From NCBI RefSeq assembly GCF_010015445.1, contig NC_053114.1, positions 45,596,536 through 45,660,535 of the forward strand: a stretch of DNA of 64,000 bases. The letters are read 5' to 3'. A program made the position numbers and the translations under genes. The stretch's first letter is position 1; every line of letters begins with the position of its first letter. This document shows positions 1,896-9,983 of the stretch, piece after piece. Source of the DNA: Perca fluviatilis (Eukaryota > Chordata > Actinopteri > Perciformes > Percidae). Under the pieces are notes generated by a model. It was not told the origin of the DNA and made no database searches. It saw only the letters and a list, made by a program, of their open reading frames with translations.

Positions 1896-4800
1896 CCGTT
1901 CTTTGTAGTAGAAGGACGAGATGGACACGGTGTCTTTGTCGGAGCGAGTGGGGCTGCCGCTGTACAGCCGCAGGGAGCTCTGAGACTCTGAACGCATCTT
2001 CATCGGAGTCAACACTCCGCTGTGATAGGCCGACAGAGCCGACAGGGACCTGAACACACACACAAAACACACACACACACACACACACACACACACACCA
2101 CACACACACAGACAGACAGACAGACAGACAGACAGAGACACACACACACTCTGAGAGACACACAACACACACACACACACACAGACAGGAGAGAGAGACA
2201 CACACACACACACAACTGAAAAAAAAAAAAAAAAAAAAAAACAGGAGATGAGCAGCTTAGCACAAAGACTGGAAGCAGGGGGAAACTGTTAGCTTAGCTG
2301 AAAGTTCCTCCAGTGTCTACTTTGGTATTTTTGCTTATTGTGATGTCATTTCCTGGAGTATCTTCACATGCTTCATATCCCTAAAATAAATAAAACCTAA
2401 ACTTAAAAGGTTATGTAAGTCACTAAACCATAGTCATTAATAAAAAGGTGAGATATACAAATTTTTATCAACAGAGTGTAAAGGCCTTGCGATTAAATTG
2501 ATGTCACCTGGTTTTGCTCCGGACATGGGAGCGTACAACGTAATGACGAAAGTGTGTGTGTGTGTGTGTGTGTCTCTGTGTGTGTGTTTCTGTGTGTGTG
2601 TGTGTGTGTAAATGTGTGTAAATGTGTGTGTCTGTGTGTCTGTGAGTGTCTGCGTGTGTAAGAGTGTGTGTGTGTCTGTCTCGGTGTGTGTATATATCTG
2701 TGTGTGTGCATGTGCGTGTGTGTGTATATCTGTGTGTCTGTGTGAGTGTGTCTCTCTCTCTGTGTGTGTGTCTGTGTGTGTGTGTATACCTGGGAGTGGG
2801 CTCGGTGGGCGGGACAGAGCGGTGCATGGTGATTGGTCGAGTGAAATAAACGAGACAGCCAGTGCCGCAGAAACGAGCGCCGGAGGTCCGAGGGAACGGG
2901 ATGTTGGCGTCCTGGGAAACCATAGCAACGTTTTAATATATATATATACATACATACATACATAAATACATACATACACACACACATATACATACATAAC
3001 ACAAATTCAGACAAAATATAAAAACAATTTTTTTAGTGCTGCCATTATATACAATTCAATGTTCACTTTGTTCAATAAAAGAAAGTTGGAAATTCTATTT
3101 GTTTAAATCCAACAAGCAGTTTATTGTATTTTAGCAGAACTGAGAACACTTTAATATCCGATTATTTATCCAAGTGATATCGCTATTCCCATATTCAACA
3201 AGTATATCGCATATTTTTCTCATATCGTCCAGCCCTAACACAGTGTGCTTGCAAAATCCACACAAATCCACACACAAACCACACAAAAAAGATGTGTGTG
3301 TGTGTGTGTGTGTGTGTGTTTCTGTGTGTGTATAGGCTCTTTCCGACCAAGTAGTTACAGGAATGTATTATATGAAAAGTCCCCTTCTAAGCAGTTCTAC
3401 TAACTACTCTCTGTGGCCATAGGGACTGGTAGTAGAGGTAAGGGAGGGACGCAAGCACTTTATAGCGTTAAAATAAGAAAACACACCAAAAAAAAAAGTA
3501 TGATCTAAATACTAAATCTAATGTATATAGTATTGTCATAATTTAAGCAAGTCTCCCGAAGAGAACGGTTATCTCTCGTGTGTGTGTGTGTGTGTGTGTG
3601 TTTTTTGTGTGTGTGTGCGTGTGTCCACGCTTGTGGAGTTTAACGCTGAAAAGACAGTTAACCACAGGTTCCCGTTAATCTTATGATGGACATGTGTTGT
3701 GATATTTAAACAAACGATCCGCCAACGGTGAAATAAAAGCCTCTTATTAACGAGAGTGGTCTGAGAGACCTCCAGCTTACAGCGGGGTCTCTGAATGGGT
3801 GTCTGTTACCTGATAGGACAGTCTGGATGTCTGTTACCTGATAGGGCAGTCTGTTGTCTGTTACCTGATAGGACAGTCTGGACGTCTGTTACCTGATAGG
3901 ACAGTGTTGCTGTAGTAGGAAGCTGGACGTCTGTTACCTGATAGGACAGTCTGGACGTCTGTTACCTGATAGGACAGTCTGGACGTCTGTTACCTGATAG
4001 GACAGTCTGGACGTCTGTTACCTGATAGGACAGTCTGGATGTCTGTTACCTAATAGGACAGTCTGGATGTATGTTACTGATAGGACAGTCTGGTTGTCTG
4101 TTAGATAGGACAGTCTGGACGTCTGTTAGACAGGACAGTCTGGTGTATGTTACCTGATAGGACAGTCTGGGTGTCTGTTACCTGATAGGACAGTCAGTCT
4201 GGATGTCTGTTACCTGATAGGTGAGTCTGGATGTCTGTTACCTGATAGGTGAGTCTGGATGTCTGTTACCTGATAGGACAGTCTGGTGTCTGTTACCTGA
4301 TAGGACAGTCTGGATGTCTGTTACCTGATAGGACAGTCAGTCTGGATGTCTGTTACCTGATAGGACAGTCAGTCTGGATGTTACCAGATAGGACAGTGAG
4401 TCTGGATGTCTGTTACCTGATAGGGCAGTCTGTTGTCTGTTACCTGATAGGACAGTCTGGATGTCTGTTACCTGATAGGGCAGTCTGTTGTCTGTTACCT
4501 GATAGGACAGTCTGGATGTCTGTTACCTGATAGGTGAGTCTGGATGTCTGTTGCCTGACAGGACAGTCTGTTGTCTGTTACCTGATAGGACAGTCTGGGT
4601 GTCTGTTACCTGATAGGACAGTCTGGGTGTCTGTTACCTGATAGGACAGTCAGTCTGGATGTCTGTTACCTGATAGGACAGTCTGGATGTCTGTTACCTG
4701 ATAGGACAGTCTGGATGTCTGTTACCTGATAGGGCAGTCTGGATGTCTGTTACCTGATAGGACAGTCTAAATGTCTGTTACCTGATAGGACAGTCTAAAT

Positions 4801-9983: not shown

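What the first reader, a model, noticed from the sequence alone, without database searches (positions are those of the whole stretch)
3795..7977. Intronic minisatellite grown from WDR59's own splice donor: about 140 decoy 5' splice sites
Seen directly: the exon 7873-7977 ends (minus strand) TCCTATCAG|GTAACAGACACC, and the adjoining 4.1-kb array consists of 28-bp units each containing TCCTATCAGGTAACAGAC. The donor, with nine exon bases, has been copied about 140 times into the intron immediately after the real one. All copies keep CAG|GTAACA, a reasonable donor. A spliceosome therefore meets a long row of equivalent U1 sites. Because 28 is not a multiple of three, use of a distant copy would usually add a frame-shifting or stop-containing extension (the third frame has TAA within a unit). 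It could act as a U1 sink, an expression brake or a variable-number locus affecting splicing.
Basis: partly seen in the sequence, partly recalled or inferred. Interest (0 to 1): 0.87.

Follow-up and report, generated by a model that had tools for sequence, protein, structure and literature searches.

The report
Splice donor copied 145 times
In a fish, likely the European perch, the splice signal at the end of one exon of the WDR59 gene has been copied head-to-tail 145 times into the intron behind it, so the splicing machinery would meet a row of near-identical start signals, almost all of which, if used, would put a stop into the message; the gene likely tolerates this by using the first one.

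Summary
The exon at 7873-7977 (minus strand) is a WDR59 exon (human residues 496-530), and the 28-bp array at 3796-7881 is an amplification of its own exon/intron junction (9 exon + 19 intron bases). It has 146 units counting the real donor; 139 of 146 keep GT and 130 of 146 keep CAG|GTAACA, so not all do. The array fills 82% of a 4,961-nt intron. Its 18-mer has 89 exact matches in the 951-Mb genome, every one inside this array. Variation rises with distance from the exon, as if the array grows at the exon end.

By calculation, using any of 136 of the 138 GT-bearing copies would put a stop 57 nt past the true donor; only copies 1 and 2 escape it. Most units also carry a branch-like TAAC and a weak CAG acceptor, making AG|GT boundaries like ratchet points. 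I find no firm evidence of selection, of structural hiding of copies, or of a U1 sink. Most likely this is a tolerated minisatellite, with exon definition choosing the first donor. Nearest precedents: human IFI6/6-16 and fission-yeast AGGT repeats. No RNA data were available, so use of the copies is untested.

The parts
7873..7977 (-). WDR59 exon (called N here), 105 nt, phase 0 at both ends; human residues 496-530
7854..7881 (-). Unit 0: the true exon/intron junction, TCCTATCAG|GTAACAGACACCCAGACTG
   Evidence: sequence
3796..7881 (-). 28-bp minisatellite, 146 units (unit 0 is the real junction, unit 145 partial)
2912..7872 (-). Intron holding the array, 4,961 nt, GTAACA...TTTCCCAG
2790..2911 (-). 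WDR59 exon N+1 (122 nt), human residues 531-571 (571 split by the next intron)
1896..2049 (-). WDR59 exon N+2 (154 nt), to human residue 622
9371..9466 (-). WDR59 exon N-1, donor ATG|GTGAGA
9588..9752 (-). WDR59 exon before N-1 (RWD region by recall), donor AAG|GTACGC
8156..9363 (-). CA-rich array (sense strand), 7 nt after the last base of exon N-1
2552..2785 (-). CA-rich array (sense strand), 4 nt after the last base of exon N+1
407..1890 (-). CA-rich array (sense strand), 5 nt after the last base of exon N+2
9526..9582 (-). Two copies of a 29-bp unit, 5 nt after the last base of the exon at 9588-9752

Best explanation
A 28-base stretch across the WDR59 exon/intron junction is present as 146 head-to-tail units that fill most of the intron, likely amplified in place; the first, real donor is likely the one normally used, and use of a copy would add 28-nt steps and nearly always a stop codon. 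Shown: the anatomy, no exact match of the junction 18-mer elsewhere in the genome, the frame outcome by translation, and variation that rises away from the exon. Inferred: a first tandem duplication of exon -9 to intron +19 was extended by slippage or unequal exchange, with newest copies at the exon end. Inferred: the 105-nt exon is defined from its acceptor, so the nearest donor wins over copies that would make the exon 133, 161, 189 nt and longer; roughly the first six copies would keep it under about 300 nt and are the realistic competitors. Inferred: leakage to copies 3 and beyond gives messages removed by nonsense-mediated decay, so array length could set a small, variable tax on WDR59 output, and the array is otherwise near-neutral.
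For: Array and unit parsing. WDR59 identity and conserved YGSYQ exon end. The 18-mer has 89 exact matches in the whole genome, all in this array (diverged copies elsewhere were not searched). 136 of 138 GT-bearing copies lead to a stop in the array; copy 2 stops in exon N+2, copy 1 stays open through N+2. Mean changes per unit in units 1-37, 38-73, 74-109, 110-144: 0.86, 1.36, 1.53, 1.91; Spearman 0.32 over 144 units, reached by 1 of 143 rotations; on the same units in 12 blocks, by 7 of 5000 block shuffles. The 12 copies nearest the exon all keep the donor 9-mer. Donor score of the shared site is middling, 6.92 of 12.61, below three of the four neighbouring WDR59 donors in the window.
Against: No RNA evidence of any kind: that the true donor wins is inference from exon definition. 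Intact copies right beside the exon are what a used, useful array would also show. The donor core has the fewest changed cells of all 28 nine-column windows (23), which would fit selection for donors; but by distinct variants 9 of the 28 windows have as few or fewer, so duplication of unit types can explain it. The copy number rests on one assembly, and the array holds runs of identical unit types at shifts of 54-55 units that could be real segmental duplication or assembly artefact.
Confidence: 0.62

Rival explanations
1. Ratchet array: each unit's AG|GT works as a combined acceptor and donor, so the intron is removed in steps of whole units by recursive splicing. Splicing from the true donor to the CAG of an intact unit rebuilds TCCTATCAG|GTAACAGAC, so steps leave no trace, and a mis-used copy leaves a GT...AG insert that could be spliced again.
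For: 134 of 146 units keep AGGT; a branch-like GTAAC lies 24 nt before the next CAG|G in 107 of 139 cases; the unit acceptor score 5.47 exceeds two real WDR59 acceptors, 3.88 and 3.83. Fission-yeast genes with 24-bp AGGT repeats have introns across 4 or 2 copies (PMC4974935 introduction).
Against: The unit acceptor is weaker than the intron's true one (7.91) and 548 of 8169 background AG sites in the window score as high. Units of 28 nt are too short to be introns singly (recalled limits). Ratchet points in flies need a cryptic exon that is recognised first (PMC8605326 passages); such an exon here would mostly be a multiple of 28 nt.
Confidence: 0.15
2. Regulatory brake kept by selection: copies compete with the true donor, and array length tunes WDR59 through nonsense-mediated decay.
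For: Intact nearest copies; near-universal stop; fewest changed cells in the donor core; an intronic VNTR contributes to TERT splicing and decay in human (PMC11830802 abstract).
Against: By distinct variants the core is not exceptional. No orthologous array could be examined, no RNA.
Confidence: 0.12
3. Ordinary minisatellite whose overlap with the exon is chance, or an assembly artefact.
For: The genome is rich in tandem arrays: 112 with unit 10-100 in the 178 kb examined, of which 5, this one included, have a unit donor score of at least 6.92. Small indel classes (27, 32 nt) could be read errors.
Against: The overlap is nine exon bases in register plus the intron start, ending at a coding sequence conserved to human. 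If the genome is the published perch assembly, its reads (N50 11.9 kb, passages of PMC11209984) could span a 4-kb array.
Confidence: 0.08
4. U1 sink: the array soaks up U1 particles.
For: Each intact copy offers seven contiguous pairs to U1 (CAGGUAA; recalled U1 sequence).
Against: 138 sites per transcript on few transcripts against about a million U1 particles (recalled) would hardly lower free U1; local U1 loading, for example against early polyadenylation, is not excluded.
Confidence: 0.03

Closest known systems
Human IFI6 (6-16, G1P3) donor minisatellite (Turri et al. 1995)
   Same: A minisatellite whose units supply several splice donors; downstream repeat units are used as donors giving three mRNA species (passage and reference title in PMC4526556; the paper itself is not held).
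   Different: There the unit is 12 bp and the array far smaller (recalled); donor use was reported from transcripts. Here there are 146 units of 28 bp, in a gene of the GATOR2 complex (name), and use is untested.
[quoted passage not shown]
   Same: Tandem units each with AGGT; introns run across four and two whole copies (introduction of PMC4974935).
   Different: There the repeated segment is exonic and an intron was created; here an existing donor is copied inside an existing intron.
Human tandem repeats in genes of segmental duplications
   Same: Minisatellite expansion (on average 30-bp units) changing gene structure; at exon-intron boundaries they may form novel introns (passages of PMC2812944).
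   Different: About 4 copies on average, versus 146.
Fish introns with AC repeats after the donor and GT repeats before the acceptor (Lin et al. 2016, as cited in PMC6093180)
   Same: Tandem repeats sit against donors, as in other WDR59 introns here.
   Different: The 28-bp array is not AC-type; it copies the donor itself.
TERT intron 6 VNTR6-1
   Same: Intronic VNTR of 38-bp units affecting splicing and decay (abstract of PMC11830802).
   Different: Described there as an expandable G-quadruplex, not donor copies.

Membership tests
Donor-supplying minisatellite (IFI6/6-16 type) | Tandem units overlap an exon/intron junction and each carries a donor | tested here: met
   Unit 0 is the junction; 139 of 146 units have GT, 130 the full 9-mer
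Donor-supplying minisatellite (IFI6/6-16 type) | More than one unit donor is used in transcripts | not testable with these tools
   No RNA data held
Recursive splicing ratchet points | Juxtaposed acceptor and donor, AG|GT | tested here: met
   134 of 146 units have AGGT
Recursive splicing ratchet points | A usable acceptor (branch, pyrimidine tract) | tested here: inconclusive
   Unit 5.47 against 7.91 for the intron's true acceptor and 3.83-3.88 for two others; branch-like site 24 nt upstream in 107 of 139
Recursive splicing ratchet points | Stepwise splicing intermediates | not testable with these tools
   No nascent RNA data held
AC/GT paired introns of fish | AC repeat after the donor and GT repeat before the acceptor of the same intron | tested here: not met
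   For the array intron: no AC array at its start. The next intron, 2050-2789, has both

The most novel reading that the evidence does not exclude
A quantised intron: some 130 near-identical AG|GT units make donor and acceptor choice interchangeable, so the intron can be cut in whole 28-nt quanta, recursive steps rebuild the same donor without trace, and wrongly kept units remain GT...AG inserts that can be spliced out again. A gene would then survive amplification of its own donor by making splice-site choice self-correcting, with array length as a heritable dial on error rate.
Probability: 0.12. Interest if true: 0.82.

Novelty: new variant of a known kind. Interest (0 to 1): 0.56.

Why it matters
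It is a natural experiment on how the spliceosome tells one true donor from a long row of copies: 88 of the 145 match it exactly from -9 to +9 and 129 over the 9-base donor. Score and local sequence cannot decide; position, exon definition or kinetics must. Counting 28-nt-step products would measure proximal-donor preference and resplicing in one endogenous locus, and any array-length differences between individuals would give a dose series. It may also catch an early stage of the tandem-AGGT route by which introns are thought to change.

Tried and rejected
Hairpin hiding of copies: I expected copies to be masked by a CUGU/ACAG stem that the true donor lacks. Local folding did not support it: in three settings 33, 72 and 87 of 129 intact copies were at least as open as the true donor.

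Selection on the donor core: lowest changed cells of 28 windows, but 9 of 28 windows have as few or fewer distinct variants; not accepted as evidence either way.

Known structured RNA: no Rfam match at gathering score in window 1-12000.

Genome survey of other donor-carrying arrays (three CAGGTRAG sites at short spacing): asked 17 times, never answered. So I cannot say whether such arrays recur in this genome.

First estimate of donor-abutting repeats as 7 of 9 was made before I read the N-terminal exon ends; reading them by eye corrects it to 6 of 10, and the probability printed for 7 of 9 is withdrawn.

Relatives: the genome tool says it holds no relatives of this genome, and the other collections on offer are of prokaryotes, viruses, plasmids and metagenomes, so I searched no fish relative and compared no orthologous intron. 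Literature searches listed no fish donor array of this size, but three of the four lists were cut (20 of 26, 15 of 27, 20 of 41; one search showed 3 of 3) and none searched WDR59 by name; this is no proof of absence from print. Passages of PMC12783039, PMC2572611 and PMC9977717 added nothing of use.

Full report
What is there. On the minus strand, the exon at 7873-7977 encodes VQEDGPASGPFVLSNPVAPALQAFPRVTNTYGSYQ; 34 of its 35 residues align to human WDR59 497-530. Five exons in the window join without a gap to human WDR59 409-622, E = 4.3e-103. The intron after this exon runs 7872-2912, 4,961 nt, and 4,077 nt of it (82%) is a 28-bp minisatellite that begins nine bases inside the exon. Unit 0 is the real junction, TCCTATCAG|GTAACAGACACCCAGACTG; 145 more units follow, the last a 23-nt partial one identical to unit 0 over its length. 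The donor 9-mer CAGGTAACA is exact in 130 of 146 units, GT in 139 and AGGT in 134.

Origin. The 18-mer across the junction has 89 exact matches in the 951-Mb genome, all in this array (exact matches only), which fits an array made here. The exon end looks like the older part: it codes YGSYQ, identical to human. Mean changes per unit rise away from the exon: 0.86, 1.36, 1.53, 1.91 in units 1-37, 38-73, 74-109, 110-144; rank correlation 0.32, reached by 1 of 143 rotations and by 7 of 5000 block shuffles. I infer growth at the exon end. Runs of identical unit types at shifts of 54-55 units point to larger block duplications as well, or to assembly error.

Consequences by calculation. Reading on from the exon, the first stop lies 57 nt past the donor. 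Of 138 copies with GT, 136 would include a stop in the array; copy 2 would stop in exon N+2, and copy 1 stays open to the end of N+2, the last exon I joined. Copies 1-6 would give exons of 133-273 nt, within the usual vertebrate size range (recalled); later ones exceed 300. The 12 copies nearest the exon keep the donor 9-mer, so the gene either lives with intact competitors or they are too new to have decayed.

How donors compare. With a recalled frequency table the shared donor scores 6.92 of 12.61; the other four WDR59 donors in the window score 7.82, 8.70, 4.70 and 8.55. 170 of 8215 GT sites elsewhere in the window score as high. Among 112 minisatellites with unit 10-100 in 178 kb of this genome, 5, this one included, carry a unit donor at least as good: donor quality alone is not remarkable, the register with a real exon end is.

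Most units are also acceptor-like. GTAAC (branch-like) lies 24 nt before the next CAG|G in 107 of 139 cases; the unit acceptor scores 5.47, below the intron's real acceptor (7.91) but above two real GT-repeat acceptors (3.88, 3.83), and 548 of 8169 background AG sites score as high. So 134 of 146 units have the AG|GT form of ratchet points (PMC8605326, passages). Splicing from the real donor to such an AG in an intact unit would rebuild the same donor. This is the bold reading, untested.

Against function. No selection is shown: the core has the fewest changed cells of 28 windows, but 9 of 28 windows have as few or fewer distinct variants. Folding does not hide copies. A U1 sink fails on numbers (recalled U1 abundance). 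No Rfam family matches window 1-12000.

Setting. Six of ten WDR59 donors examined have a tandem array within 7 nt downstream: five in the window at 5, 7, 0, 4 and 5 nt and one of the five N-terminal exons (arrays; exon ends read by eye); the other four N-terminal donors have none that close, the nearest being about 25 nt off. For scale, 16 of 202 GT sites with clean upstream sequence in window 1-12000 have an array that close, real donors included, and 24 of 2874 in the whole window. Apart from this array and the 29-bp pair, these are CA arrays, a known feature of fish introns (Lin et al. 2016 as cited in PMC6093180, passages); the next intron has CA at its start and TG at its end. The 28-bp array is the one that copies the donor itself. 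Another WDR59 donor, ATCAG|GTAACAGC, is nearly the same sequence and has not been amplified.

Species and assembly. The genome size, 951,185,382, is close to the 951,362,726 of the published Perca fluviatilis assembly (passages of PMC11209984), built from nanopore reads and Hi-C; I infer perch. WDR59 is split in this assembly: residues 36-178 lie on the plus strand about 123 kb away, residues 408-622 and 897-974 on the minus strand, with N runs at both ends of the segment between; 179-407 and 623-896 were not found, and some of the stretches fetched read N. A misoriented contig would explain the strand change. The array itself lies in an N-free stretch, window 1-9983.

Precedent. IFI6/6-16 (Turri et al. 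1995; title and a citing passage seen; details recalled) has a minisatellite that supplies several used donors. Fission-yeast AGGT repeats have introns across whole units (PMC4974935, abstract and introduction). Human repeats at exon-intron boundaries may form new introns (PMC2812944, passages). So the kind is known; the size, the copying of a conserved gene's donor, and the AG|GT unit make this an extreme variant.

Noticed in passing
window 9984-10483 and G000 C3:45477172-45606290: WDR59 is broken in the assembly: exons for residues 36-178 are on the plus strand about 123 kb from the minus-strand exons (408-622, 897-974), with N runs at both ends of the segment between; probably a misoriented contig. 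Residues 179-407 were not found.
   Followed up: partly
L016 (G000 C17:10374169-10374264): A lone remnant of a WDR59 exon, 63% identical over 32 residues, with a GT after it; no other WDR59 match on that contig. Perhaps a relic of a second copy (sequence).
   Followed up: partly
window 9526-9582: Two copies of a 29-bp unit 5 nt after another WDR59 exon end: may be a donor-side array at its first step.
   Followed up: no
window 16967-17244 and 27128-27955: Two arrays of one 24-bp unit, CCACCTACAGGTCTCGTTACACCT, with an AGGT in the consensus unit.
   Followed up: no
window 2050-2789: WDR59 intron with a CA array after its donor and a TG array before its acceptor, fitting the published fish AC/GT paired introns.
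   Followed up: partly
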